A stretch of DNA of 13,287 nt, from NCBI GenBank assembly GCA_023246995.1, contig JAHFHI010000001.1, positions 6,301 to 19,587 on the forward strand, in the 5' to 3' direction. The DNA is from Candidatus Omnitrophota bacterium (lineage in GTDB: Bacteria > Omnitrophota > Omnitrophia > Omnitrophales > Aquincolibacteriaceae). Each line of letters begins with the position of its first letter. Positions within the stretch are counted from its first letter, which is position 1. The notes under the pieces were generated by a model. That model searched no databases. It was not told where the DNA came from and saw nothing but the letters and a program-made list of their open reading frames with translations. Both the position numbers and the translations under genes were made by a program. Positions 1-13,287 of this stretch are shown one piece after another.

Positions 1-3000
1 CCGGGGTAAGCGACTTCATGATCTTTTTAAAATCGCCCTCCGGCGTACGAACTTCCGAGCGGGGCGCGGCAATGGCTGCTTCCCAAGCCTGCTTCAGCTC
101 CGCCAGCACGCTTTCATCCCCAGCCGCAACGGCGCTTTTAATGAGGTTCAGAGCAAAAACAATTTTTCCCTGTGTCTCGACAGCCTCGGCAATCACGGCC
201 TCCGGAAGCCGGCCCCGCAACCCGAGGGGCAAATCCTGAAGATAGGCCATGGTGCCTCCCAATTTGTTATTGAGAAGATCCGGCCATCTTGCGGGATTTT
301 TGAAAAATTCGATCATGTCTTCATTTTCATAGCGGCCGGGTTTGTCCGCGGACAAAGCACCGTAGGCGCGGACCGTGGCAACATAAATCCCGACGGCATC
401 CCGAAGATTGATTTTGCCTTCAAAAACAGATCCCAGAGGCGCTTGGATTATCCGGTAGTTCCTTTCATATTGAAGAGCGGGCAGGAGATTCCCGATTCCG
501 GTTTCAAGCTTTTTGTAGAGTCCCGAAAAAGCTTCCAGCGACGCCGCGAATGCCGCGGCCGTTCTGCCTTCCGCGATTCCAAGATCAGCCTCCCCTTGGC
601 TTTTGGCCTGATTGAGCAGGGCCCCGAGACGGACCCCTGCGATTTGCGATCTCATGAGAGCGTCTTCAAGGTCTATTTCCGGAGAGTTCCTTTCCATCAA
701 CCGAAGATCCTGCTCCAAGGCGTGCAATTCTTTGGCTATTTTTTCGTCCGGCGACTTGAAATAGCCCTGAAGAGCGCTCAACTCACCCAGAGTCTGCGTA
801 ACCAAATTCCAAATCTCCGGGCCAACTTGCATCCTGACCTCGGAACGCCGTGCGCTCTGATCTGCCCGGTCAAGCATTTTTTCAACTCTGCCGGGATTTG
901 CCAGCTTGGGTAAATGGCCGAAGACCGGCTTGCCCGGCCCGGACTCGGGGCCGACGATTTTTGCCAGATCTTCGTCCCCGCTTGAAATCACCACCAGAAT
1001 TTTGGAGTCTTCGCCGTAAAGTTCACGGGCAAGATTTAAACCGCTTTGCGCCTCTTCCATGCGCAAATCCGTCCAGACCAGATCATAAGGCGCGCCGGAT
1101 TCCGCGGCCTGGCGAGCCATGACTTCCGCTTGGGCGGCACTTTCAGCCGTTTCGATTTTCACCTCCCGGCCTTTGTCCTTTGCCCATCGGCGGATCGTCA
1201 CTTCGGATATCAAGAGACTGTCGGGCTCGTCATCCACCACCAAGATTTTCCCGAGCCCCGCGCGCACCTCCGAGCGGGCCGGACCCCCTGCCGATTGTTT
1301 CTCAAATTCCGCCTTCAGAGCCCGGTACTGCGCGTCTGTTTCAGGATGATCAAAAGCCTCGTTAAACCATCGCCGGATGTCCTCGGTGATTCGTCCGACA
1401 TCCCCGGCCATGGGTCCGTTCAGGAGCTCGGTGTTGTCGGCAATCCTTCCGGCCATAAACCCGAGAATGTATTCTTTTGAGCGGGTAGTCCCCCCTACAT
1501 TGTGGGGCATGTCATCGATCAGTACGAGACGGCCGTCACGGGAGATAAAAGGATCAAATTGATCGGGAATTTTCCCGATATCGTGCATGAACCGCATCTG
1601 GGCGGCGGTTTTGCGCACAAGCGCCTCGGCGCGCGAAAAATCCTGTTCCAGGACAAGCTTGGGCAATGCGTCGAAAACATCCCAGACGCGCTCCTCAATC
1701 AAACCGATAAATTGGAATTGTTCGGTGGCGCTGCTCTTGTTACTCCACACAACGGCCAAAGAGCGGGGGTGATAGATACCCGAAAAATTAGTCTGCTGGT
1801 AAAAATACTCCTCAAGCGCGGCCTGAATCTGAACCTTGGTCGGGTGAAGGGCTCCCCCATGGATTGTTTTGAGGGCATATTCGGAGTTGAGACGAACCGT
1901 CCGGTTGTTGCCCATGCTCAAACCCAGATCAAGGGGCGACCAGAGTTTCGACAAAAAGTTATCCATGGGCACGTCTTTCTCAAAATTTGCCACCGGGACG
2001 CGGAAAAGATTATTTTTGTCTAGGCCCGGCGGCACATCCTCTTCCCGGACCCATTGCTCCATGTTCCGATTTTCGGGAATACGGTAATAGTTCTCGATCA
2101 CGGCTCCGGCCGCGGCAAACTTTTGATAAAGATCTTTTGCTAAAGCCCCCCACTCCTCGGAAGACCGGGGCGCTGCCTGACGGAAATCCAAATCTGCGGG
2201 GGCGGTCCGCACTTCCGAGCGGGAGGGCATAAGCGGGAGCGAAACATCCGTGAGATTGGGATATTGGACCAAGACACCTCTCCCGCCGCTGCGGTCCGTG
2301 AGCACGAGATAGCGGCTTCCGTCGGGGCGTTCCCCCATTCTTAAATCCGCGTGTTGGAGAGCCACTCCGGGGACCTCCGCCAGTGCCAACGGCTTGGCGC
2401 TTGAGTAACCGACCGACGGACTGCGGCCGACTTTTACCGAGCCTTCGCTTCGGGGAAGCCAAACACCCTGCTTGGGCATATCCGCACGGGAAACCTGCCA
2501 CCCGGACCAAAGCCACCCCTTTTTATATTCGACGGTGATTTCGGCCTGGCTTGGGCCCAAAAGAATGGAAATGCCTCCGGGAGGAAAGCGGCCCTTCGGA
2601 AAATTTAAAACAACTTCCTGGTCGTCCAAAAGTTGGGCATAGGGTTTGCCCCGGATCATCTGAATTCCGGCAGGTTTGAAGGGAGAGTTCGCGCTTCTGT
2701 CCATAAAAGCGACGTTCAGCAGTTCCTCAAAAATAGCGCGCCATCGCACACGCTCGGCCGAGACCCGGTCGTCGCCGAAAACCACGGCCCGGTGATCCGT
2801 ATCGGGTTTGAGAACTCTTGAGTCGTAAAGCTCCAGCATGGCTTCCCGGATGAGCTCTTCGTTAAACCCTCCGGCCTGTGTCTGAATTTCATAGAGCGTG
2901 CGCAGAAAAGTTTCCGCCTCGAGCTTGGAGAGAGTGCCTTGGAAAGGACGCGAGACCCATCGGCCGCTTAGCCGCACAAGCTCGGGCTGCTTTGTATAAT

Positions 3001-6000
3001 CCCGGTGCACAAAGGCCTGAAGCATTGCAGCCTGAAAAGGCGTGAGCAAGGGGAGCATGTCTTTGAGCCCCAGGGATTCAAGGGAAATCATTTCACTCGG
3101 GTCATGGAACCACTCACCCTCCCGGTCGGTTATGGCCCGGGTATGGGCAAAGGAAACTCCGGCTCGCACTTCGGAGCGCGAAACACCAGGTTTCACGCTG
3201 GACAAGTATGCATTATCTTCATTTTTTAAATAGCTTATTATTAAATCGACAACGACCCCGGCTCCTGTTAAAGTTCCTTCACTTTGAATTTTTGAAAGGA
3301 TCCTTTTTATGAAAGAAGAAAATTTTACCCCCAGCCAGGTTGGAAGACTATTAGAAGCCATGGACAAGAAGATTGATCTGCTTACCGAGATTGTGACACC
3401 TCTTCCTGAGAAAATGGCCGCTATTGACAATAGGCTTGAGAAAGTTGAATTCAGGTTGACTTGCGTCGAGGACGCCGTACGAATCGCCCTTCCCGGTCTG
3501 AATAGGCGTGTTGAAACTCTTGAAAAAAAAGTAGGCGTCTGACCCGCTTCTCGCACTTCGGAGCGGACGATTTTTACGGCCTGGCTTCCGGAGCTTGGAG
3601 ACGGCCACTGGACCTTATAAGGAAGAGAGGTCTCGGCCTGAAGAAACTTCTGGAGCCGGACCGCAACGTCGGCCACCATCTCCCGGGGCGATTGGTAAGT
3701 TAAATTTCCCAGCTTTTTCGCGAGATAATTTTCGCTTTCGTCACTCTCCCAGACACCTTCGCCGGCATACGCGAGGGTGATTTCAGCAGGATCGTCTGGG
3801 CGATCCGCCGACAACTCAATCCACTCCGTGGGAATCAGCGTGCCGATAAACTCCCGCATACGCGCGAGTGTCATCGATGAGCCAGGCTCCGGCGCGCCGG
3901 GTGGCCGAAGAAGCCCTTTGATCAAAGATTCAATCACCTGGTAACTGTCATACACGGCCTTCTTTTGAATATGAAAAACACGCTCGAGGTTTTTGGTGGT
4001 TACTAAGGCTCCAAGAGAGCTGTGAAAGAGCGTGGGGTAAACCCGGCCCTGCTTGCGCGCCTCGAGAACCATGGCATCGCCCTCGAGCTTCGGCATATTG
4101 ATATCCGTAATCACCAGGTCAAATTTTTTAGCCATATGCTTGAGGCCGCTCGCACCGTTGTCGGCCTCTTGAATGAATAGCTCGCCGTTTTTTTCTCCGG
4201 CGCCGCGGAGGATCGCCCGGACCACCTGCCCCCGGATGGCGTCATCATCTTCCACAACCAGAATATTCTGAAGCGGAGGCTTCAGCTGTAAGCGCTGGGC
4301 GATCTCCGCCGCCAGTTTCTGTTCTTCGGCGGCGCGCACTTCCGAGCGCGCGGCTTTTCGGGCGACGATTGCAACTTTAGGACCAAAGGCCGGACTTTGA
4401 ATCGTGTAACGATGACTGTAACGTCCCGCCTCGATCATCCCGTGCTCGGCCAGGGCCTGCATGGCCTGCTCAAAGTGGCGGCCATGATTCACCTCCGGCA
4501 TTGTCGGCGCATACCCCCCGGCCACGTAGAGCCCCACGCCGTCTAAGTCTTCAAGATAGGATATGGCGTTTAGATGTGTGCCCGGAGGATAAACGGGGAA
4601 TTCCCCGATGTTGGCAAAAATAACGTCAATTTTTCTACCGGCCAGCTTCCCAAGAACTTCACTCTTTTTATTAATGTCAGCCACGACAAAATCCGCGGAA
4701 TCGGGGCTCAAGCCGTTGGCATCCATGTGCCGCTTGAAAAGCTTGGGGGCCGACGGATCAATATCAAGAGGGATGACGCGGGCGCCTTTTTTTAGTGCCA
4801 GGAGAGAAAGAATGCCGTCGCCGGCGCCTAAATCAAGTACGGTCTTCCCGGCCAGATCAAGGGAACTGACCGCCAGGACCATGGGCGCGGCATAAATGTC
4901 AAGCGTGTGGTCATAGTCCACAAGCGAGCTCTGCATCCGGTGGAGGTAAATGACATGGGATCGCAGTTCCTCTGAGAACTGTTCCAGGATCGGCTCAAAC
5001 CGTTTTTTCTGTCTATCATCGATAAAAATCCAGTCGCCTATTCTGACATACCCGATCTTGCCCGAATCAGCTCCCTGCCTGGTGAAAAAACCTTTATGGT
5101 AAACAGACTCCTGTCCGGATGCGTCGGTAAGCCGGGCTATCGCATTAGGCGGGGCTTCGAGATAAAATTGATAACCCGGCAACTTAGCGGGAATTGATTT
5201 TTCAAAAGCATCCGTTTCCGTCGCCCGAACTTCGGAGCGAAGCCCGGCGATCTCGGCAGCAAGCCCATCCCAGTCAAGGGAATCAAGGACCCGGAGATTG
5301 GCAACCTGCTCTTCAAAGAACCGCAAGGGCAAGGATTTTTGTACCCCGAGGAAAATCACTTCCAGATACCGCAGGCGAAAAACATCCTTCAGAGCTTGAA
5401 GTTCTTCCAGGCTCAAGGGATCAAGAGCTGCTTTTTGGTAGGCCGAAACAAACTCACGAATTTTATCAAAAGCCAGGCTCGTTCCATCCGCTTGATAACG
5501 CATGGCAAAAGGGCTGGCTAAATCGTAAATCCGAAGGTCCGTGTGCGCGTACTCAAAATCAAACAGACCCACGCCGCCGGAGGGAAGAAAACGGACGTTG
5601 GCCTGATGATAATCTCCGTGAACGATTTGGACCGGGAGGGAGGCTATCCATTCCGGAGTGAATCTGGAACGGATCTTTTCCGCATGAGGACGAAGCTCGG
5701 CGGTGTGCGTGAGAAGAAAACTTTCCGCTTCATTGTAAGGGGGCCCGCGCCGGGTTAAGGTTTCTTCAAGCTTTTCAAGACGCCCTAATCCGGTTTCAAG
5801 GCCCGCCACCGGCATAATCGGCGGAAGCTCGCTTTCCCCGTACGGACGTCCATTCAAAACCGCGCCTTTTACGGCGTGATGGATCCGGGCAAGCGCGGCC
5901 CCGGCAACCCGAAGATCGGCTCCTTCAACCTCTCCCCAATCGTATTCTTTTCCCTCGATAAATTCATAAAGGACGTAGAGCGCATCCGCCGTCCGGGTCG

Positions 6001-9000
6001 CGTTTTCTCCCCTTTTATTGGCGATGACTCCGGCCGCCGTAATCCCGGCGCCTTTCAGGGTTTCAAGAAGCGAGGCTTCCCAGTCGACAAGCTCTTCGCG
6101 GTTCCGGTAAAGCGGGTTTTTGAGAACATAGGTTCCTTTCTCGGATCTCACGATCGCAATATTGGGGCGGGGCCCGGCTTCGATGCTTTGAATTTGCCCG
6201 ATCTCATACTCCGCAAGCACCGCCTCCAGACGAGCGCGCACTTCCGAGCGGTAGGATTTCTTAAAGAGTCCCGGAATTTTAGAACCCCCGGATGTTTCCA
6301 GCTGCATGAACTCTTTTTTCTCATAGGCCTCGCGGAAGTATTCCTCGGAATCCTGAAGAAGGTGATAGAGAAAACCGCCGTCCTTTAGGAGGCGCACTTC
6401 TTGTTTTGCAACCAAAGCTAGGATTTGCCGCGCCTCTGCCCTGTTTTCAAAAGCGCTTTCGTCAAGACCTCCTCCGTAAATGAAATCATAGGACTGATCC
6501 CCGAAGATCTGCGGATCAAGGCCGGCTGCGTCCGCGCGATAGAGCCGGAGTCTTTTAGCAACATCCGGTGAATTTTCGAAAGCCCGCTTTAAGGCTTGCA
6601 GCGGCTCCTGACTCACATCCATGGCGGTGATCGCTGCTAGGCGGGCACGCCGCGCAAGCTCCGTGATCTCTCCCGGGGTCCCACCGATCACAAGAATGTT
6701 CGTCAACTGACTGTAGGGAATATAAAATTGCCCGAGCAAGGGAATGGCGTGATAGCCGACAGTCGTATCGACCGTGCTCGTTTTAACGTGCGGCGTGTCT
6801 CCGAGAAGGTCCACGATCTCGATCGGCACGGATTCTCCGGTCTGGCCGCGCACTTCCGAGCGCCGTGCGGAATCCCCGGAGGAGAACAGATAAGTCCGGT
6901 CAAGATCCGCGTCGATGCCTTGAAGGAACGGCCTGAAATCCCGGCCGTCATCAAGAGAAGGGATATTGAAACTGTGCAGCGTTTCGTCCAGTTCCCGGAT
7001 GGAATCGGGGAAATCCATGGCCGTATACCACTTCTCATCTTTTTTAAAGTGGTCAAGGCGCAGACTGGAAAATGAACTCTCAAAAGCCGCCCGCTCTTCC
7101 CTGGGTTTTAAAATATTAACAAAAAGGCGCGGCTGGAATTTGGCGGCCCCGTGCCAGCGCGCCATCACATGCACCGGATAGCTTTCACCTTCCCAATCAA
7201 AGAAAAAGTAGCGTTCCCGGCCCACGCCTTCCTGAACCAGCTTGGGCCTCCCGGCCCGCTTCAGATTTCCGTCTTTGAGATCAAGGAGCAGTTTCAGCAT
7301 CATGACCCACTCCGAGGCCGCGCGGTTTATCTTGGAAAGAGCCTCGCCATCCAGTCCTCCTTTTTGCAGCTGCGCCCGAAAAACCGCGCGCACGTTTTCA
7401 AAGGCCACGCGGATCTCCCGGAGCGGTTCGCTATCCGGTTCCGCGCCGCCCTCAAAAACGCCCCAGGGCTCGAATCTCATCAGCCGGTCGATCTGGGAAA
7501 AACGCTTTTGAATTTCCGCTTTCATTGCCTGCTCGCCGCTCCCCACGCGCACTTCCGAGCGGCGAGCCGGCCGGAGAGCTTGAAGCGCGTCTTCCAAAAG
7601 CGGAATGCCGAAGAAATAGACCGTTTGATTCTGCGCCAGAACAGGCTCCCCGCCTTTTCCCATCTGCGGCTCTTCGGACCGGTACTTGACCAGCATATGC
7701 GCCTCGGATTCAAGCCCTTCGCGAAGGGTACCCTCAAGGCGCTCAAAATCGCCGATGGCCAAAACCGTTTCGGGCCACTGGCGGCTCATGCCCGTGACAA
7801 AATTTTCGAGAGCGGGTTTGTCCCAATCCCGCAGCACATGATTGACCGCGACCAGATCCGGAGCGGGAAATTTTTCCCGCAGCGCTTCTAGATTTCCGCC
7901 GTCAAAATGGATCAGTTCGATCGCCTCGCGGGCTTCCGTGAGATGCTTATTAAGGTAGGCCGCGACATTTCCCGTATACGATTCTCCCCGCCCCGGAGAG
8001 GGCGGATTGTAAGCGCCGTAAAAAGGCCTGCCTTCATATAAACGCGTCTGCCCCCGGCTCCAAACCTCGCGGTTTGATTCAAACCCAATCACCTTCAAAT
8101 CCCAATCCCGGGGATTCTGGCCTTCATTTTCCAGGGCCGTGGCAAGTTCGTAGTAATGGCGCAAAAGCTCTTCGCCCGTGGCCGCGCCAAAAGACATTGC
8201 CACAAGGCTGGGTTTTTCTCCGGATCCTTTCCGTTCCAATGCCCGGTTGATTAAATAGGAAAGCGTGCCCTGATTCAGCCATTCCCACTGCGGCCTGTGC
8301 CGGTCCAGATAAGAACGGAACCTCGGATCCTCCCCGCGTGAAAATGCCGGATCCGCTCCGGGATAGACAAAACGAAATGCGGGCGTGCCCGCCGCCCGGA
8401 CTTCTGAACGCGGCGCGGCGGGTTTTTCGGCCGTGAGGTAAAACCAGTTCCGGGGAACATTTTCGATGCCCTTTTGAGCGGCCCGCCTCAAGGCCTCGGC
8501 CATGATCCCCTGCCTTTCGGCTTGGGGAATACCGGAGGGGAGAAGCGCGTCGGTTGTGCCGGGAACGCGGAAGAAATCCTCCAGGCCGTCCAGGGTCAGC
8601 ATAAAAGTTTTGGTTTCAGTCCGGATATCGGTGAAGCCTGCTTGCCCGGCCCACTTGGCATAATCCTCGGGCGTGGGCGCGCTCACCTTCAAGCGCCGGC
8701 CGAGGCTTCGGGGATCAGGATACCGCTCGCTTATGACCTCCAGGGTTTCACGCCCGATCACGCCGAGTGCGTCGCCGGCTTCTTTTGGAAAGGCCGTATT
8801 ATAGAACGTGCTGTTAAACGCGAATACTTTTCCCGGCGGCAGTTTGTCGTAAATTTTCGCGAATAGATTTTCATGCTCCCCCATTAAATGGACCGCGTTA
8901 AAGGAAATCACGGCATCCACCGGTTCGGGGAGGAGATTCTCCAAATCGTGCGCGTTCCCGGCGCGGAACTCCACGGGAAGGGACGGACTGTTTAAGAGAC

Positions 9001-12000
9001 CCTGCTTCGCGGCTTCGACCATGGCCGGGGATGCGTCAATGCCGATGACGCGCCCCGAGGGTCCGACGGCCCCGGCCGCCATCAAACTTCCGTGCCCAGT
9101 GCCGCTGCCGAGATCGGCCACCACCTGCCCCTGCTTAAGATCCGCAAGCTCCAAAAGATGCTGGTTGGCGGCTTCATACCAGCTATGCCCCGCAAAACGG
9201 GCGTAGGCATCCGCCGCCTGCGGCTGATTCCACATATCCGCGCTGCGCACCTCAGAACGCAAACGCTCATAACCCCGGCTGTAGGGATTATACTCCCACT
9301 GTTTGCTCCTCCTACGGTCGCGGGATTCGAGAGTCCCGAGCTCCGTATCCGCAAAGCGAAGTGGATCCCGCATCTGGTCTCCGGAGACATACCGGTCTTG
9401 GTCAAGATAAACCCGCACATCTTTTAAAAGCGCGTCCCCCGGCCCCATCCAGACCGGCCGGGAAGCGTGGACCGCCACCTGCACCGATCCGTCCGGTAAA
9501 AGCAGGGTCTGGAATTTAGCGCTGAAACTTCCGGGAGTCTCCTTCTTCTCCTTAAGTTCAAATTTGGCAACGTCCGCGACATACCGGACCTCCCCCGAGG
9601 TCATTTCAAAACGCTGCGCTCTCACGTGTCTCTCGACGATGTATTCCCGGGGGTAAATGGCCTGAATCGCGACGTCGCCCCGCTGGCCCCTGCCCAGGAT
9701 GTTAAAAATCGCGTATTGGTCCGGGTCTTCGCCGACCTGAATAAGAGCTTGAGCTCCTTCGTTCAGGCGGAAAGTAGCGCTCCGGGCCGTTCCCGCCGCC
9801 AGCGGGATAAACGACCGGGCTCCCCAAATAATCTGCTGATTGTTAGCGATTCGGTAGCGGTTTTCTCCGGGCACCTTCAGACCTTCCGGGGCTTCGGCCC
9901 GGGCATAATCGAAAATCTCCCGGCGGAGTTCGGGATATTTTCTTTCCACCCCGGGAAGCATGGCCATCGCAAGCTCAAAAATCTGCGCGGGGTTGTCATG
10001 GCTGTGCTCAATCGAGAAGGTTTCGGTCCGCACCTGAAAACCCAGGATTTTCAAAAAAGCGTCCGCGTTCCACAGAAGTTCCGAATCATCCGGGATTGAT
10101 TTGAACATGAATTTACGCCGCAGATATGCCCGGGAAGCCGGATCGTCGGAATGAAGATCGTTATAAACAATCACAAGATGACCGCCCGGCTTCAGAAGCC
10201 CGGCCGCGTTAATCAGCGTCTGAATTCTCAACGCCGGGTCGTCGGAATAAAGGCTGTGGGAGGCCAAAATCACATCCGCTTTCTGGTTCCCTTGAAGCAT
10301 CGGAGGGATGCCCTTAAAAAAATCCACTTCGACCGTCGAGACCTTCGGCGGCAGGCCGCGGAGCTTGGTCAATGCCGAGGGGTCTTTTTCCACCGCGTAC
10401 ACATGTCCGAATAGCGGCAGAAGAGCCGTCGTGAGCCGGCCGTCGCCGGCCCCCAAATCGATTAAAATGCGGTCCTCGGGTTTTCCGGTGAGTCGCGCTC
10501 CGAGACCTCTTAGCAGCCGGCGCGCGGTCTCCTCTTTTTCAGCAGAGGTCAAAGCCACCGCGGCCGCGTAAGTCGAAATCGCCTTTTGAATGATAAGCTC
10601 CTGTCCGGATTGAAGCAGAAGATAGGGGTCGTATCGGCGCGTGTCCCTTCCCGGCAGGGCTGTTCCGTTGCCGTAGAGAATCGCGCGGGTAGCCTTATTA
10701 TGGAAGAGCGGGTTCCCGCTTCTTTGGGTGTAAGCCGCCAGCTCATTCTGGAGATCGCGCACCTGGATATTCTGCTTTAGGCGGATCCTAAACTGCACAA
10801 GCCCCTCGTCACGGTTCCACACAAATTCCGGCTCTCCCGATAAATCAAAAAGCGGTCCGGCGGGTTTGGATCGCACCTCGGAACGGGGCCTTCTTTCTTC
10901 CGGGGCCCAGGCGACAAGTTCTGAAGAAGGGGAAATGAGCGGCGATCTTCTGCCGATTTCAAGCGCGGGAACGACGTAGTTGTCCTTTGGGAAACCCATT
11001 TTTTCCCGAATGATCTCGGGATCTACCGGAACAAAAATCGCCGGAGTCTGATAAAAAGGCGGGGCCTCGCTCATCCGCATGCGCGCTTTCAAAAAATCGC
11101 CGATCAAAAGAGGCTGCCCTTTTTCAAGGTTCAAGCGTCGGAGGGAATCTTCCAGCTGTTTGCCGTAGGCCACTCTGCCCCGGCTCGAGGCCGTCACGAT
11201 CATCGGAAGAGATCGAATCTTCTGTCCCTTGGCAAGCGATTCCTGGAGAATTTCCAAAATCAGAATTTGCTCCGCCACTTCGCATTGAAGGCAGGCGTCT
11301 TTGACGAAAACAATGTGTCCGAGTTCGATTTCCTTCTTTCCGGCCTGACCTTCCACAAGGGCTTTGGCATATTCCCTATGACTTACGGCACGGGGATCTT
11401 CGAGGATTTTCGAAAACTCAAGGCCGAGTTGCCCGTCCGAAAACCAAAAATGATTGGGCCCCCCGTGGCCAGACTCCCAAATTGTGGCAGGTTTTCCGGC
11501 TTTGGAGAGCTCTAAAATCTTTTTAAGATACCCTTCCTTTTCGAGAATATTTTTCTTGATATCTCCACGGCCTTTAAAAACTTCCGCTTCCCCGGCGCCA
11601 AACCCGGCCAGCAGGGCCTTAATCTCCTGGGTATTAAAACGCTCCTCCTGATGGGCCGCAATCACGACCGTCCTGCCGGGCCCCACAATCACGGCATTCC
11701 TGTCAATCGCCTTCTGTCTTTCTTCCAAAATCAATTCAGCGGCCTTACGGGCAAGATTCTCCTGGGCGCCAGGAACCAATCCTTTCCAGTGGCGGCTGTA
11801 AAACTGTATGAAGTGAAGCAGGGGGGCTTTGATGGGTTCGAGTTTCTGGCGGGTCAGCCGCTCATTTTCAATTCTTCCCAATAGACCGTCGAAGAATAAA
11901 CGATCAAAACCAGACCCTAATGCATCCGACATCCCTGCCATTTCAAAGATATCGAGTTCGTCTATATTCTTTTTATCTGTTTTGAAATCACCGCTGTAGG

Positions 12001-13287
12001 GTTTTAACTGGTTGATCGTTATGACCACCTTTTGATCAAGCATAAACTTCAATGCGGAATCAATGATGTAACTGTCGGCGCTATTCAAAAAAGGCCGCAT
12101 CTCCTCGAAAGTGGTGCGCACGCCCTGTTTCTCAAGAACCCTGAAAGCCCGCAGCCTCATATAGGGATCTCCTGCGGCCAGATACGGCGCCATCCGGGCA
12201 ATCGTCAGAGGAACATCCTTGACCTTCTGGGATTCCAGGATGTCCAAAAGCCCGCCCACAAGCTCGCTCTTTTCCAAATTAAAGGGTTCTTTGGGATCAA
12301 TCTTGATATCCAGAAAAGGCTGAAGCGATTTGGCGCTCACAGGGATTTTTTGCTCCGCGATATAACGGAGGACAGGCGCCACGATCAAAAGATTATCTTT
12401 ATGTTCGAGCAAAGGCTGGAGATCTGCTTCGGAGACTTCAATGTTGGTACGCTTCATCACTCGCAAAACATCGCTTAGGAAAAGCGTATCCTTGTGTTTT
12501 AAGTACGGCCTCACAAGCTCGGGGGGGATATTCATTTTAAGAGCTTCCATGGCTTCCAATGCACCTAGGGTAAGATGGCGCTCTTCCGTCTTTTTCATAA
12601 CGCCCTGCAATTCCTCGAAGGAAACCGGCAGTTTTTGATCCTTGATGATATTAAGCCCCCAGGAAACAATACCGCTCTTTTCACTTTTCAAAAAAGGCCT
12701 TACCCATTCTGTCGTCACCGGTACTTTCCTGATGCTGACGATGCGTAAAGCCTCGAACGTGACTCCAAAGCTGTTCAGTTTCAAATAAGGTTCCAGATCC
12801 TTAGCCGTGACGGAATAATTTCTTCTAAAAATAATCCACAAAGAGGCCTTGGCCTTACTCTCCTCCGCCGTGCTCAAATAGGGTTTCATCTGGTCAAAAG
12901 TGACGGGGATATCCGCGACTTCACTGATCACGTTCATGGCGCTTAAAACCACTCCCTTTTCTTGATGCCCCAGGAAGGGTTTTAAGGCTTCAAACGGCAT
13001 CACAATTTTTTGTTTCGCGATAATAATGAGTACGTCCCTCATGACTTTCGGATCTTGATTTTCAAGATACGGTTTGAGAAACCCAAAATCCACCGAAATG
13101 TCTCTAAAAATCACCACATTCAGGGCCGCATTAACAATGGCGGGGTCCTCCTGCTTCAAATAGGCCTCCAAAAACTTTGGGCTCACAGAAATGCTTTTAT
13201 CCTCTTTGAAGGCAAGATCCTGGAGACCGGCCAAAACCTCCTGCCTGTCTCCGCTTTTTAATCTTTTTAGCAGTTCTGCTGGGATAT
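1..13287 (-). CDS. Giant multidomain protein, internal fragment (open at both ends)
   Basis: One minus-strand frame is free of stop codons through the whole window. Its complete codons run from 13285 to 2 and give 4,428 residues, with the true start and stop outside. Domains in order: alpha-solenoid (about 1-430), caspase-like domain (about 530-760), SAM methyltransferase plus beta-rich tail (806-1342), UbiE-like methyltransferase (1348-1625), CheR-like methyltransferase (1631-1908), unknown (1914-2141), methyltransferase-like (2147-2345), APH-type kinase (2351-2682), PrmA-like methyltransferase (2688-2979), receiver plus tail (2985-3240), insert (3246-3369), unknown plus FHA-like (3375-3688), divergent kinase-like (3694-4003), receiver (4009-4146), helical (4152-4408). 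Fourteen R-S-E-V-R motifs mark the joints from residue 801 on. I saw no transmembrane segment or signal peptide, though the N-terminus is missing. The overall biological role is unknown. Giant genes of this kind are known from Omnitrophota, which I offer as a guess at the source. Confidence 0.93.
47..61 (-). repeat. RSEVR motif copy 14 (residues 4409-4413)
   Basis: Codons cgc tcg gaa gtt cgt. It opens a further module, of which only 15 residues (T-P-E-G-D-F-K-K-I-M-K-S-L-T-P) are inside the window. Confidence 0.9.
62..832 (-). other. Domain: unrecognised all-helical module
   Basis: Residues 4152-4408, mostly long amphipathic helices such as I-W-N-L-V-T-Q-T-L-G-E-L, I-A-K-E-L-H-A-L-E-Q-D-L-R-L-M and A-A-F-A-A-S-L-E-A-F-S-G-L-Y-K-K-L. 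A helical bundle is likely. Coming straight after a receiver, a histidine-phosphotransfer-like role came to mind. The only suggestive His is in E-L-H-A-L-E-Q, which lacks the usual H-x-x-K-G context, so I do not assign it. It begins with Met directly after RSEVR, as if from a separate gene start. Confidence 0.45.
833..847 (-). repeat. RSEVR motif copy 13 (residues 4147-4151)
   Basis: Codons cgt tcc gag gtc agg. The last Arg uses an AGG codon, unlike all other copies. An in-frame ATG follows immediately (R-S-E-V-R-M). Confidence 0.9.
848..1261 (-). other. Domain: response-regulator receiver (complete, stand-alone module)
   Basis: Residues 4009-4146. K-I-L-V-V-D-D-E-P-D gives the acidic pocket (Asp4018/Asp4019), L-V-W-T-D-L-R-M has phospho-acceptor Asp4073, V-V-I-S-S-G supplies the switch Ser4101, and L-P-K-L provides the conserved Lys4127. 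All four landmarks are intact and the module is about 138 residues, the usual receiver length with no output domain. It is flanked on both sides by RSEVR motifs, so it is the cleanest example of one motif-bounded unit equalling one domain. The following helical module may be its partner. A cognate histidine kinase is not seen. Confidence 0.88.
1262..1276 (-). repeat. RSEVR motif copy 12 (residues 4004-4008)
   Basis: Codons cgc tcg gag gtg cgc. The coding strand contains GGAGGTG, a strong Shine-Dalgarno-like string, but no start codon follows closely. Confidence 0.9.
1277..2206 (-). other. Domain: divergent module, possibly kinase-like
   Basis: Residues 3694-4003. Two segments recall the protein-kinase-like fold: E-Y-A-L-K-T-I with Lys3806 in the ATP-lysine style, and about 100 residues later Q-F-D-P-F-I-S-R-D-G-R-L-V-L-I-D-D, with Asp3911 like a catalytic-loop acid and Asp3924/3925 like the metal-binding acid. 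A helix M-R-F-M-H-D-I-G precedes the first Asp, as in kinase C-lobes. The normal D-x-x-x-x-N and D-F-G forms are absent, so this could be an inactive relative or an unrelated fold. The N-terminal 90 residues (for example E-N-Y-Y-R-I-P-E-N-R-N) are unrecognised. It lies directly before a receiver module. Confidence 0.35.
2207..2221 (-). repeat. RSEVR motif copy 11 (residues 3689-3693)
   Basis: Codons cgc tcg gaa gtg cgg. It follows directly on the FHA-like domain (P-L-M-P-S before the motif). Confidence 0.9.
2222..3163 (-). other. Domain: unrecognised helical region followed by FHA-like domain
   Basis: Residues 3375-3688. The first 220 residues are mostly helical and acidic (for example L-E-A-E-T-F-L-R-T-L-Y-E-I, E-L-I-R-E-A-M-L-E-L-Y) and match nothing I can name. 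From about 3605 on there is a forkhead-associated-like pattern: G-S-V-K-V-G-R-S (Gly3620-Arg3621), then V-A-L-Q-H-A-D-L with His3645, then Y-L-V-L-T-D-R-S-G-G-R-G-V-L-V with Ser3666. In FHA domains the order is G-R, S-x-x-H, then D-x-x-S-x-N-G-T. Here the Ser before His and the Asn of N-G are replaced (L-Q-H and G-G-R-G), so phosphopeptide binding is doubtful. If real, it is a phospho-Thr reader next to two kinase-like modules and two receivers. Confidence 0.45.
3163..3178. repeat. 16-bp direct repeat, left arm flanking the insert
   Basis: Identical to 3550-3565 and in the same orientation. It contains RSEVR copy 10. Together the arms look like a duplicated insertion or recombination site. 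Confidence 0.85.
3164..3178 (-). repeat. RSEVR motif copy 10 (residues 3370-3374), downstream arm of the insert
   Basis: Codons cgc tcc gaa gtg cga, the same as copy 9. It precedes the module that ends in the FHA-like domain. Confidence 0.9.
3246..3274 (+). promoter_or_regulatory. Candidate sigma-70-type promoter of the small + strand gene
   Basis: The -35 box TCGACA (3246-3251) matches TTGACA at five of six bases. A 17-bp spacer leads to TAAAGT (3269-3274), which matches TATAAT at four of six. Transcription would start near 3281, leaving a leader of about 28 bases that contains the ribosome binding site. This is a pattern match only. Confidence 0.35.
3294..3300 (+). promoter_or_regulatory. 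Ribosome binding site of the small + strand gene
   Basis: GAAAGGA ends eight bases before the ATG at 3309. It supports this ATG and this strand. It also lies within the 12-bp palindrome AAAGGATCCTTT (3296-3307), which could form a weak hairpin over the site. Confidence 0.6.
3309..3542 (+). CDS. Small coiled-coil protein (77 aa) encoded opposite to the giant gene
   Basis: ATG at 3309, TGA at 3540-3542, with a well-spaced GAAAGGA site. The protein has a short polar head (M-K-E-E-N-F-T-P-S-Q), an amphipathic helix (L-L-E-A-M-D-K-K-I-D-L-L-T-E-I), a Pro-containing turn (T-P-L-P-E-K), and a C-terminal coiled coil with Leu/Val/Ile at heptad spacing (I-D-N-R-L-E-K-V-E-F-R-L, then L-N-R-R-V-E-T-L-E-K-K-V). 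Small acidic/basic coiled-coil proteins of this look are widespread hypothetical proteins in uncultured bacteria. I cannot give a function; it probably forms oligomers. It is the only + strand frame here with protein-like composition, an RBS and a promoter. It lies wholly inside the giant gene's open frame, within the segment bounded by 16-bp direct repeats, which suggests late arrival. It contains no Tyr or His, which helps explain why the opposite frame stays open. No terminator is visible after its stop. Confidence 0.75.
   Translation: MKEENFTPSQVGRLLEAMDKKIDLLTEIVTPLPEKMAAIDNRLEKVEFRLTCVEDAVRIALPGLNRRVETLEKKVGV
3550..3565. repeat. 16-bp direct repeat, right arm flanking the insert
   Basis: The + strand 16-mer CTCGCACTTCGGAGCG is identical to 3163-3178 and in the same orientation. 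The bases next to it differ from those at the other arm (T versus G before it, G versus C after it), so the identity is exactly 16 bp. It contains RSEVR copy 9. Confidence 0.85.
3551..3565 (-). repeat. RSEVR motif copy 9 (residues 3241-3245), upstream arm of the insert
   Basis: Codons cgc tcc gaa gtg cga. This DNA version is shared only with copy 10. It borders the insert carrying the + strand gene. Confidence 0.9.
3566..4333 (-). other. Domain: response-regulator receiver plus unrecognised tail
   Basis: Residues 2985-3240. The receiver begins I-L-V-V-E-D-D-D (acid pocket at 3012-3015) and carries phospho-acceptor Asp3061 in L-V-I-T-D-I-N-M-P. Ser3089/3090 (F-H-S-S) stand in the Thr/Ser switch position. 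A Lys follows in H-I-Q-K-K-A-V (3108/3109). All receiver landmarks are present, so phosphorylation is plausible. The remaining 110 residues (about 3566-3900) include a helical E-F-I-G-T-L-I-P and a P-A-E-I-T-L-A-Y strand, and match no output domain I know. No histidine kinase is visible in the window. Within this chain the receiver may act as a phosphorylation-dependent switch for its neighbours. Confidence 0.8.
4334..4348 (-). repeat. RSEVR motif copy 8 (residues 2980-2984)
   Basis: Codons cgc tcg gaa gtg cgc. At this copy only, flanking GCGCGC on both sides could pair into a 6-bp stem around an 8-base loop. Other copies lack this. Confidence 0.9.
4349..5224 (-). other. Domain: PrmA-like (ribosomal L11 methyltransferase type) SAM methyltransferase
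   Basis: Residues 2688-2979. The core has G-K-T-V-L-D-L-G-A-G-D-G-I-L-S (2813-2827, near 4805-4849) and A-R-V-I-P-L-D-I-D-P-S-A, with ribose acids Asp2841/Asp2843, then M-D-A-N-G-L. This spacing and wording is close to PrmA and related protein or small-molecule methyltransferases. The motif IV strand is K-I-D-V-I-F-A-N-I-G-E. The catalytic block in amino-methylating enzymes usually reads N-P-P-Y or N-I-L; here it is A-N-I-G, nearer the N-I-L form of PrmA. About 130 residues precede the core, including Y-V-R-I-G-D-W-I-F-I-D-D, and may be a substrate domain. The module ends P-K-V-A-I-V-A-R-K-A-A just before the next RSEVR. Confidence 0.7.
5225..5239 (-). repeat. RSEVR motif copy 7 (residues 2683-2687)
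   Basis: Codons cgc tcc gaa gtt cgg. It follows a helical A-E-I-A-G-L end of the kinase and precedes the PrmA-like module. Confidence 0.9.
5240..6235 (-). other. Domain: aminoglycoside/choline-kinase-type (APH fold) phosphotransferase
   Basis: Residues 2351-2682 make a full-length APH-family domain of about 330 residues. The N-lobe has R-P-N-I-A-I-V-R-S-E-K-G-T-Y-V-L-K-N, with Lys in the ATP-lysine position, and a hinge at Y-V-L-Y-E-F-I-E-G. The catalytic loop is V-H-G-D-Y-H-Q-A-N (His2556, catalytic Asp2558, Asn2563; near 5597-5620). The metal-binding segment is G-L-F-D-F-E with Asp2576 and Glu2578, followed by D-L-R-I-Y-D-L-A. The family includes aminoglycoside, choline, homoserine, fructosamine and methylthioribose kinases. 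By general look it resembles the small-molecule kinases of the homoserine/choline type, but the substrate is not determined. All catalytic residues are present, so it is likely active. Confidence 0.88.
6236..6250 (-). repeat. RSEVR motif copy 6 (residues 2346-2350)
   Basis: Codons cgc tcg gaa gtg cgc. It separates the methyltransferase-like module from the APH-type kinase. Confidence 0.9.
6251..6847 (-). other. Domain: SAM methyltransferase-like, degenerate SAM loop
   Basis: Residues 2147-2345. A strand N-I-L-V-I-G-G-T-P-G-E (2196-2206) aligns with the SAM loop. It is followed at the right distance by T-A-M-D-V-S-Q-E-P, with Asp2223 as the ribose acid, then R-L-Y-R-A-D-A-A-G-L (motif III) and Y-D-F-I-Y-G-G-G-L (motif IV). 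The loop reads V-I-G-G-T-P-G, not D-x-G-x-G-x-G. This recalls the V-I-G-G-G-D-G loop of the spermidine-synthase branch of the fold, but the aminopropyltransferase signature is not otherwise present. The N-terminal part contains P-H-V-K-T-S-T-V-D-T-T-V-G-Y-H-A-I-P-L-L. Activity is uncertain because of the atypical loop. Confidence 0.6.
6848..6862 (-). repeat. RSEVR motif copy 5 (residues 2142-2146)
   Basis: Codons cgc tcg gaa gtg cgc. It follows an A-R context and separates the unrecognised module from the methyltransferase-like module. Confidence 0.9.
6863..7546 (-). other. Domain: unrecognised module of about 228 residues
   Basis: Residues 1914-2141 match no family I can name. The first half is helical and charged (K-A-E-I-Q-K-R-F, then E-W-V-M-M-L-K-L-L-L-D-L). 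The second half alternates like beta structure, including a Tyr/Phe-rich strand R-Y-F-F-F-D-W-E-G-E-S-Y and the stretch H-V-M-A-R-W-H-G-A-A. A Met eight residues after the RSEVR motif (A-M-K-A-E) could mark an ancestral start. It sits between two methyltransferase-like modules, so an accessory or substrate-recognition role is possible, but nothing in the sequence shows it. Confidence 0.5.
7547..7561 (-). repeat. RSEVR motif copy 4 (residues 1909-1913)
   Basis: Codons cgc tcg gaa gtg cgc. Its DNA is identical, including one extra base at + 7546, to copies 5, 6 and 8. It separates the CheR-like module from the unrecognised module. Confidence 0.9.
7562..8395 (-). other. Domain: CheR-like SAM methyltransferase
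   Basis: Residues 1631-1908. The SAM loop is L-V-A-M-S-F-G-A-A-T-G-E-E (1694-1706), with the T-G-E-E signature typical of CheR-type methyltransferases in place of the usual D-x-G-x-G-x-G. It is followed by W-D-L-K-V-I-G-F-E-S-N-R-E-V, equivalent to the CheR strand that normally reads A-T-D-I-D. The later P-D-L-V-A-V-N-H-V-L-R-D-W matches the CheR motif that often reads F-C-R-N-V-L-I-Y-F. CheR enzymes methylate glutamates of chemoreceptors, but no receptor or other chemotaxis gene is visible here. The fold is therefore assigned and the substrate is not. The N-terminal 65 residues, rich in Arg, Pro and Trp, may be a helical extension. Confidence 0.6.
8396..8410 (-). repeat. RSEVR motif copy 3 (residues 1626-1630)
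   Basis: Codons cgt tca gaa gtc cgg. This is the most diverged DNA version, yet the five residues are unchanged. It separates the UbiE-like and CheR-like modules. Confidence 0.9.
8411..9244 (-). other. Domain: UbiE/Methyltransf_11-like SAM methyltransferase
   Basis: Residues 1348-1625 form a complete class I methyltransferase of about 278 residues. The N-terminal A-D-A-Y-A-R-F-A-G helix and the SAM loop V-A-D-L-G-S-G-T-G (1389-1397, near 9095-9121) match ubiquinone/menaquinone-type and general Methyltransf_11 enzymes. Asp1423 in G-I-D-A-S-P-A-M is the expected ribose-binding acid. A-G-N-A-H-D-L supplies the motif III acid, and V-D-A-V-I-S-F-N-A-V-H-L-M is the motif IV strand. A second half with helices and a GFTDIRTETKTF-type strand completes the fold. 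All expected core motifs look intact, so it is probably an active enzyme. The acceptor is unknown. It begins three residues after an RSEVR motif at Met-Trp-Asn-Gln, which looks like a former gene start. Confidence 0.85.
9245..9259 (-). repeat. RSEVR motif copy 2 (residues 1343-1347)
   Basis: Codons cgt tct gag gtg cgc. It lies between the beta-rich tail and the UbiE-like module. An in-frame Met (M-W-N-Q) follows three residues after the motif. Confidence 0.9.
9260..10870 (-). other. Domain: class I SAM methyltransferase with long beta-rich C-terminal extension
   Basis: Residues 806-1342, the longest RSEVR-bounded module. After about 130 residues of mixed N-terminal sequence comes a class I methyltransferase core. 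The SAM-binding loop I-D-L-G-A-G-D-G lies at 942-949 (near 10440-10460), and the acidic residue that would hold the ribose is in A-V-E-K-D (Glu966/Asp968). A typical later strand follows G-L-L-K-P-G-G-H-L. The core ends near residue 1150. The next 190 residues (about 9260-9830) are rich in beta-type alternation (for example VQVAVHASRPVWMG) and end in a charged Arg-rich stretch. I do not recognise this tail. The substrate cannot be inferred: the core resembles general Methyltransf-type domains, not one specific family. Confidence 0.75.
10871..10885 (-). repeat. RSEVR motif copy 1 (residues 801-805)
   Basis: Codons cgt tcc gag gtg cga. This is the first copy in the window. It separates the caspase-like region from the first methyltransferase module. 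None occurs in the 800 residues before it. Confidence 0.9.
11000..11700 (-). other. Domain: caspase-like (clan CD type) putative cysteine peptidase
   Basis: Residues about 530-760 show the order expected of a caspase/legumain/clostripain fold. Strand TVVIAA (539-544) is followed by a helix, strand AEVFKG, a helix, and strand PATIWE running into G-H-G-G with candidate catalytic His607 (codon 11465-11467). Further on, hydrophobic strand HIVFV runs into K-D-A-C with candidate nucleophile Cys665 (codon 11291-11293). Clan CD peptidases carry His-Gly after one hydrophobic strand and Ala-Cys after the next. The 58-residue His-to-Cys distance is plausible for the group. A second Cys three residues on (Cys668, C-L-Q-C) could instead suggest a metal or disulfide site, so the call is not certain. 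A further strand, LPMIVTASS, could be the next core strand. Clan CD enzymes often prefer a single P1 residue, Arg in clostripain and separase, which is of interest beside the Arg-ended RSEVR motifs that begin just downstream. A helical segment (about 470-530) links it to the solenoid. Confidence 0.55.
11990..13285 (-). other. Domain: HEAT/ARM-like alpha-solenoid, about 13 repeats of 31 residues
   Basis: Residues 1 to about 430 are tandem helical repeats. The recurring core is an I/V-P-V-T/S turn, then a helix ending L-x-P-Y/F-L, then a variable charged loop, then a second helix such as A-L-x-V-I. Examples of the first helix are IPVTFDQMKPYL, YSVTAKDLEPYL, VPVTTEWVRPFL, IPVSAKSLQPFL and VRTTFEEMRPFL. 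Counted from one such start to the next, the period is 31 residues in most repeats and 32 in three. One repeat, which begins at IPVSAKSLQPFL, is 44 residues long because of an acidic, lysine-rich insertion. The last repeat (VVITINQLKPYS) decays into a charged linker. The array continues beyond the right edge, so the count is a minimum. Such solenoids usually act as protein-binding scaffolds. That role is inferred from the fold; no ligand is visible. HEAT, ARM and leucine-rich-variant types cannot be told apart by eye. Confidence 0.75.

What the first reader, a model, noticed from the sequence alone, without database searches (positions are those of the whole stretch)
47..10885. Fourteen in-frame RSEVR motifs mark nearly every domain boundary of one giant protein
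The pentapeptide R-S-E-V-R occurs 14 times, always in the same minus frame, at + 10871, 9245, 8396, 7547, 6848, 6236, 5225, 4334, 3551, 3164, 2207, 1262, 833 and 47. The units it bounds are 129 to 542 residues and mostly equal single recognisable domains. The codons vary (cgc/cgt; tcg/tcc/tct/tca; gaa/gag; gtg/gtt/gtc; cgc/cgt/cgg/cga/agg) while the amino acids do not. That points to selection on the peptide, not a recently spread DNA repeat. Four copies (4, 5, 6, 8) do share an identical 16-mer, so some are recently copied or constrained at the DNA level. I know of no described linker or processing signal of this form.
Basis: seen in the sequence. Interest (0 to 1): 0.9.

Follow-up and report, generated by a model that had tools for sequence, protein, structure and literature searches.

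The report
Peptide punctuation in giant exported proteins
A five-residue "full stop" marks the joints between modules in a class of giant, probably exported bacterial proteins, and each genome spells it in its own way, which suggests that something in the cell, perhaps a protein-cutting enzyme, reads it.

Summary
Confirmed: 14 RSEVR copies in one open minus frame, 0.007 expected. The same genome has 117 pattern hits against 2 reversed; all 92 copies that I read lie in frames of 401 codons or more. None of 128 seams lies inside 32 Pfam stretches (circular shifts: 13), and none of 102 homology segments crosses a query seam. Relatives carry such seams in their own dialect: RSELR, RSEMR, RSEAR, K[SA]ELR, or another word, [AG]xSLG. 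The proteins form one class: signal-like N-terminus (32 of 34), an unnamed N-terminal domain (hits in 54 of 58 genomes), modules, C-terminal Ala (25 of 25). Selection is on the peptide, with an unexplained codon bias at residues 1-2. Best explanation: exported polyproteins whose seams are read by a dialect-matched factor, most likely an endopeptidase. Cleavage is inferred; no reader was found (C11, C14 and S41 peptidases are not co-distributed). One window unit is not a module: it holds a conserved 77-codon gene lying antisense.

The parts
2..13285 (-). giant open frame, 4428 codons in the window, open at the 5' end (contig ends there); just past the low end of the window comes a run of N in the contig
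10871..10885 (-). RSEVR seam 1
9245..9259 (-). RSEVR seam 2
8396..8410 (-). RSEVR seam 3
7547..7561 (-). RSEVR seam 4
6848..6862 (-). RSEVR seam 5
6236..6250 (-). RSEVR seam 6
5225..5239 (-). RSEVR seam 7
4334..4348 (-). RSEVR seam 8
3551..3565 (-). RSEVR seam 9, upstream (giant strand) of the antisense cassette
3164..3178 (-). RSEVR seam 10, downstream of the antisense cassette; same 16-mer as seam 9
2207..2221 (-). RSEVR seam 11
1262..1276 (-). RSEVR seam 12
833..847 (-). RSEVR seam 13
47..61 (-). RSEVR seam 14
10886..13285 (-). module with weak HEAT-like match (below Pfam cut-off) and a His-Gly / Asp-Ala-Cys arrangement that recalls clan CD peptidases (by eye, unproven)
   Evidence: relative in G002; fold failed
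9260..10885 (-). methyltransferase module
8411..9259 (-). methyltransferase module
7562..8410 (-). module with weak CheR match (E 0.0065, below cut-off)
6863..7561 (-). module without Pfam match; relative between seams in G003 (L089)
6251..6862 (-). methyltransferase module
5240..6250 (-). APH-type phosphotransferase module; relatives in seven other genomes' long frames
4349..5239 (-). methyltransferase (PrmA-like) module
3566..4348 (-). response-regulator receiver module
3309..3542 (+). 77-codon coiled-coil-like gene lying antisense inside the giant frame, with a ribosome-binding-like sequence before ATG 3309 and TGA 3540-3542
2222..3178 (-). module without Pfam match
1277..2221 (-). module without Pfam match
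848..1276 (-). response-regulator receiver module; aligns seam to seam with a module of contig C3
62..847 (-). module without Pfam match

Best explanation
RSEVR is this genome's spelling of a seam peptide that separates independently evolving modules in a class of giant, probably exported, multi-enzyme proteins. Shown: boundary position, class-wide architecture, peptide-level conservation, genome-specific dialects. Inferred: the seam sits in an exposed linker and is read in trans by a genome-specific factor, most likely an endopeptidase outside the cytoplasm, so that the giant chain is a polyprotein released as separate modules. Dialects arise because many sites and one reader drift together. 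A new module, or a junk piece such as the antisense cassette, can be added without harm if it is bounded by two seams.
For: 0 of 128 seams inside 32 Pfam stretches; 0 of 102 homology segments cross a query seam, and 0 of 15 outside the N-terminal module. Residues beside seams are less hydrophobic and more disorder-prone than bulk. Modules include whole enzymes with intact catalytic motifs (UDP-sugar dehydrogenase, adenylate kinase). Genome-wide dialects, also within one genus (G003 against G017). In the APH module 13 of 16 ends carry a seam, mostly in the host's spelling (by eye). Signal-like start 32 of 34, C-terminal Ala 25 of 25.
Against: No cleavage data. Peptidases C11 (0 of 58 genomes), C14 (3 of 58) and S41 (28 of 58) do not follow the seams. 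The caspase-like window unit is found in 2 of 27 family genomes only. Genus g7 spells the seam loosely (V, A, L, T, M, I, S at residue 4), and the residue after it differs (A/T/S in 66 of 92 here, often E/D there), which is odd for a strict protease. In g7 relatives residue-4 variants occur side by side in one frame. Several modules are SAM- or ATP-using enzymes, hard to place outside the cytoplasm. Codon bias at residues 1-2 is not explained by a peptide reader.
Confidence: 0.5

Rival explanations
1. Seams are docking or anchoring points: a scaffold, surface polymer or export factor binds one site per module on an intact chain. Dialect is co-drift with that binder.
For: Same boundary and dialect evidence; no peptidase found; loose spelling in g7.
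Against: A module of antisense junk also gets two seams, which a docking role does not need.
Confidence: 0.2
2. Seams are nucleotide-level joints: short homology or a site-specific system shuffles modules, and the host's seam DNA comes with the insertion. The peptide is a by-product.
For: Ser TCN 92 of 92 and first Arg CGY 87 of 92; CGY preferred in other genera; homologous modules end at seams; cassette between two identical 16-mers; mutual information between some third positions exceeds nearly all shuffles.
Against: Free positions are just the synonymous ones; last Arg is AGR in 20 of 92; flanks are not conserved; 63 distinct 15-mers among 92; G039 seams use both Ser codon families and 29 of 30 15-mers differ; the seams of the antisense cassette keep the giant frame's orientation.
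Confidence: 0.15
3. Passive linkers: seams have no reader; they were copied with modules and kept because a charged, flexible joint is good for folding.
For: Linker-like composition around seams; shared codon families suggest copying.
Against: Strict invariance here (92 RSEVR; RSEIR, RSEMR and KSEVR once each) and genome-wide uniform but different spellings elsewhere are not expected of a passive linker.
Confidence: 0.13
4. Chance, composition or assembly artefact.
For: The assembly is fragmentary (311 contigs, 69% complete) and has N runs at some frame breaks.
Against: 92 observed against 0.069 expected; the same pattern in many other genomes.
Confidence: 0.01

Closest known systems
Giant open reading frames of Omnitrophota (PMC10066038, passages seen)
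   Same: Very long frames, common in small-genome bacteria, few recognised domains, poorly conserved; thought to be surface or extracellular
   Different: Those passages mention no inter-domain motif, shared N-terminal domain or C-terminal Ala; the frames here hold soluble-enzyme modules. That the window is from this phylum is my guess: no tool named the organism
Eukaryotic polyproteins with a repeated processing linker (e.g. light-harvesting polyproteins of Euglena; recalled, not looked up)
   Same: Many independent units in one chain with a short conserved peptide at each joint
   Different: Units there are near-identical repeats; here they are unrelated enzymes, the organism is a bacterium, dialects differ between genomes, cleavage is unproven
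MARTX-type multi-effector toxins (recalled; PMC6254334 abstract start seen in the listing)
   Same: Giant exported chain of different effector or enzyme modules, possibly set free by cutting between modules
   Different: No RTX repeat or toxin-type cysteine protease appeared in the Pfam scans of the frames examined; no constant seam word is known to me there
In-frame mobile DNA repeats such as Rickettsia palindromic elements (recalled)
   Same: A short word found in frame in many genes of one genome
   Different: Here the peptide is conserved rather than the DNA, flanks are unrelated and domains are avoided

Membership tests
Polyprotein with repeated processing linker | one frame encodes several separate folded proteins | tested here: met
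Polyprotein with repeated processing linker | a conserved linker peptide at the joints, absent from within units | tested here: met
Polyprotein with repeated processing linker | the linker is cut in the cell | not testable with these tools
   no proteome at hand
Polyprotein with repeated processing linker | a processing protease present wherever the linker is | tested here: inconclusive
   C11 0 of 58, C14 3 of 58, S41 28 of 58 genomes, none following the seams; other families not tested
MARTX-type toxin | RTX repeats and inositol-phosphate-type cysteine protease domain | tested here: not met
   none among Pfam matches of the 18 unsplit frames scanned; best 25 families listed, E<=0.001; relatives' other frames not scanned
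In-frame mobile DNA repeat | nucleotide conservation beyond the coding need, copies in other frames or inside domains | tested here: not met
   flanks not conserved; no copy in the other five frames of the window; none inside domains. Codon 1-2 bias is the one DNA-level sign
Omnitrophota giant ORF | frame longer than 20 kb | tested here: met
   in relatives (open frames of 14273, 10559, 10910 and 15709 codons); in this genome frames are cut by contig ends, longest seen 4434 codons
Omnitrophota giant ORF | organism belongs to Omnitrophota | tested here: inconclusive

The most novel reading that the evidence does not exclude
A bacterial lineage keeps tens of exported polyproteins per genome, punctuated by a genome-wide peptide code (R[SA]E[V/L/M/A]R or [AG]xSLG) that drifts as a dialect together with one dedicated reader that cuts them apart, so that whole sets of enzymes are made as one chain and set free outside the cytoplasm or in a neighbouring cell; new modules enter simply by being bounded with two seams.
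Probability: 0.35. Interest if true: 0.95.

Novelty: new variant of a known kind. Interest (0 to 1): 0.85.

Why it matters
What becomes of giant bacterial proteins after synthesis is open: a 2024 survey says some could be cleaved and names the proteases and motifs as the difficulty (PMC11573180, passage seen). Here is a concrete motif, with dialects, that can be tested on metaproteomes. It also gives a rule for cutting giant frames into modules before annotation, markers (N-terminal domain, C-terminal Ala) for a class of exported proteins, and a natural experiment in co-drift of many sites with one reader.

Tried and rejected
Rejected: chance or composition; an ordinary mobile DNA repeat; a Shine-Dalgarno remnant (considered because GAGGTG resembles one; rejected on GAA 64 against GAG 28 and Met after the seam in 4 of 92; no dedicated test); clostripain (C11), caspase (C14) and C-terminal processing (S41) peptidases as common reader (the S41 idea came from the C-terminal Ala).

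Led nowhere: fold of the caspase-like unit (mean pLDDT 38.8, not searched further); a second fold job on a receiver module with its seams, unfinished at every poll; the N-terminal domain against Pfam, NCBIfam and PDB, where a guessed EreA/ChaN/Tiki-like fold found no support; naming the organism; paper searches: RSEVR as a word is in one paper, on an alginate lyase (listing only), and no seam of this kind showed in the listings. bioRxiv, which holds a giant-gene preprint cited in PMC12057145, was not searchable.

Limits. The 117 genome hits come from a pattern fixing CGN-TCN at codons 1-2; 89 of them are among the 92 copies read, 28 were not read. Contigs read were chosen because they had hits. 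Pfam reports only the best stretch per family, some matches used are below curated cut-offs, and one of the 16 frames had no match. The 102 segments count pairs within this genome twice and are mostly N-terminal modules. The codon table was trained on five window units. In one search YTN also covers Phe. Of 31 small-gene places, 20 became loci; L104, L105, L107 and L110 were not re-found by my tblastn at 1e-3 and are outside the count of 16. Seams of families f5, f9-f15 and most genomes were not examined beyond pattern counts.
Full report
The observation. The genome (G000, 1.65 Mb in 311 contigs, 69% complete) has 117 hits of CGNTCNGARGTNMGN against 2 of the reversed pattern. In the 21 contigs that I read, the window's own included, there are 92 RSEVR copies, all in frames of 401 codons or more, against 0.069 expected; one-step variants are rare (RSEIR, RSEMR, KSEVR once each). 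28 of the 117 hits were not read.

Position. In 16 unsplit frames (9 from this genome, 7 from relatives; 47,825 aa) none of 128 seams falls inside 32 Pfam stretches; circular shifts give 13.0 on average and never 0 in 5000 (domains). A Pfam-free test agrees: of 102 BLASTP segments of 80 aa or more between seam-bearing frames none crosses a seam of the query, against 50.7 under shifts, 0 of 500 as low. Most of these are copies of the N-terminal module, and pairs within this genome count twice. Without it, 0 of 15 segments (60 aa or more, 10 modules) cross, and 1 of 1000 shifts is as low. On the subject side some N-module segments do cross a seam-like word (listing). Beside seams the five residues before and after are richer in disorder-promoting residues (0.62, 0.64 against 0.47 in bulk) and poorer in hydrophobic ones (0.22, 0.17 against 0.32).

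Modules. In the window: four units with methyltransferase matches above a Pfam cut-off and one weak CheR match, one APH phosphotransferase, two receiver domains, weak HEAT-like repeats, five units without a match. In relatives: UDP-sugar dehydrogenase with its catalytic Cys motif, adenylate kinase with P-loop, sugar epimerase/dehydratase, Ham1, transaldolase, histidine phosphatase and others. Codon statistics put the coding sense in the giant frame for 92 of 92 units of the other contigs of this genome and 14 of 15 window units (table trained on five window units). In relatives, for which the table was not trained, 21 of 225 units were flagged as low or not best.

The class. Of 34 giant frames with a natural N-terminus 32 have a signal-peptide-like segment, by a crude rule that also fires in 33 of 152 frames of 250-800 codons. 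Of the first 20 such N-termini, 15 share a domain (alignment A2) that matches nothing significant in Pfam, NCBIfam or PDB. A2 matches 54 of 58 relatives, up to 45 copies per genome. All 25 giant frames with a clean natural end finish in Ala, 23 of them in AA or SA, against 11 of 152 in the comparison frames, which include spurious ones.

Dialects. Counts of RSEVR / RSE[LF]R / RSEMR patterns over 58 genomes: G000 117/8/2 (reversed control for the second 15); G014 6/310/3; G010 9/138/4; G015 5/85/4; G017 8/13/171; G003, same genus as G017, 165/29/79; G031 4/89/1; G035 0/62/2. Others are mixed (G016 78/37/41, G005 55/47/72). In stretches read, G004 uses K/R-[SA]-E-L-R, G013 RSEAR, G041 R[SA]EVR. 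Families without this word still have the class: in G039 SLG occurs 48 times against 9.9 expected (30 as [AG][ASGQNK]SLG), weaker in G038 (9 against 2.9) and G032 (5 against 1.4), not clear in G027 (2 against 1.1). In two G039 frames no such seam lies inside a Pfam stretch (by eye). The window's APH module has relatives in long frames of seven other genomes; counting the window, 13 of 16 module ends carry a seam, mostly in the host's spelling (RSELR in G014, RSEMR in G019, K[AS]ELR in G004), by my reading. Between G003 and G017, 4 seams aligned residue by residue stay seams (one with Ala for Ser) while flanks differ; a fifth lies at an alignment edge and has no partner there. Two modules on different contigs of the fragmentary G017 assembly meet exactly at one G003 seam.

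Peptide or DNA? Synonymous positions are free, the last Arg uses all six codons near bulk frequency (AGR 20 of 92), and G039 seams use both Ser codon families (19 AGY, 11 TCN; 29 of 30 15-mers distinct). So the peptide is kept. But here Ser is TCN in 92 of 92 (bulk 64%) and the first Arg CGY in 87 of 92 (bulk 42%), and relatives prefer CGY too. Descent can explain TCN; the CGY bias is unexplained. The 15-mers are 63 distinct of 92, and some third positions are linked beyond nearly all shuffles, so some copying is likely.

The odd unit. Window 3179-3550 does not score as coding in the giant frame. It holds a 77-codon gene on the plus strand with a ribosome-binding-like sequence, ATG 3309 and TGA 3540-3542. 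Relatives occur in 18 of 145 genomes of the phylum and evolve as a protein on that strand (codon-position differences 0.50, 0.31, 0.64). In 13 of 16 classified loci it lies antisense in a frame of over 600 codons with seam-like words; four loci were not classified. In five (window, L093, L094, L096, L098) the seam-to-seam length is 360-387 bases; in others it is longer. Among the 10 loci with both flanks, flanking modules were unrelated except for one pair. It looks like a cassette that travels between seams.

Mechanism. The best account is a polyprotein: an exported chain of enzymes with seams that a genome-specific reader recognises in exposed linkers, most likely by cutting. Spellings that are uniform in many genomes and different between them are what co-drift of many sites with one reader would give. 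This step is inference: no cleavage data, and three peptidase families tested are not co-distributed (C11 0 of 58, C14 3 of 58, S41 28 of 58). The loose spelling in genus g7 and the different residue after the seam there argue against a strict protease.

Prior knowledge. Giant frames in Omnitrophota are known (PMC10066038, passages; PMC12057145, passages), and PMC11573180 (passages) says cleavage of huge proteins and its motifs are unknown. I saw no such seam in the searches. That the window is from Omnitrophota is a guess from giant frames and genome size.

Noticed in passing
window 3309-3542 (+); also L092, L093, L094, L096, L098, L099, L100, L102, L103, L106, L108 and L053:15099-15833: A conserved 73-94 aa coiled-coil-like protein gene lies antisense inside giant frames, usually between two seams; in L053 three copies stand in tandem.
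   Followed up: partly
alignment A2 (e.g. L044:315-1169, L042:1952-2788): An unnamed N-terminal domain after the signal-like segment, in 54 of 58 relatives and up to 45 copies per genome; invariant Ala-His and Glu-Gly.
   Followed up: partly
C-termini of 25 giant frames: All end in Ala, 23 of 25 in AA or SA, against 11 of 152 comparison frames; meaning unknown.
   Followed up: partly
window 10886-11875 (-): His-Gly and Asp-Ala-Cys after predicted-strand-like stretches recall clan CD peptidases; His-Gly and Cys also in the G002 relative (L075). By eye only; the fold failed.
   Followed up: partly
L031 (contig C162:1-6400) and L033 (contig C3): The giant frame breaks at runs of N just past the low end of the window and on C3; C3 also has one in-frame stop right after a seam-bearing end (RSEVRIAAE).
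   Followed up: no
RSEVR codons 1 and 2, all copies read: First Arg almost only CGC/CGT and Ser only TCN; the CGY preference also holds in other genera and is unexplained.
   Followed up: partly
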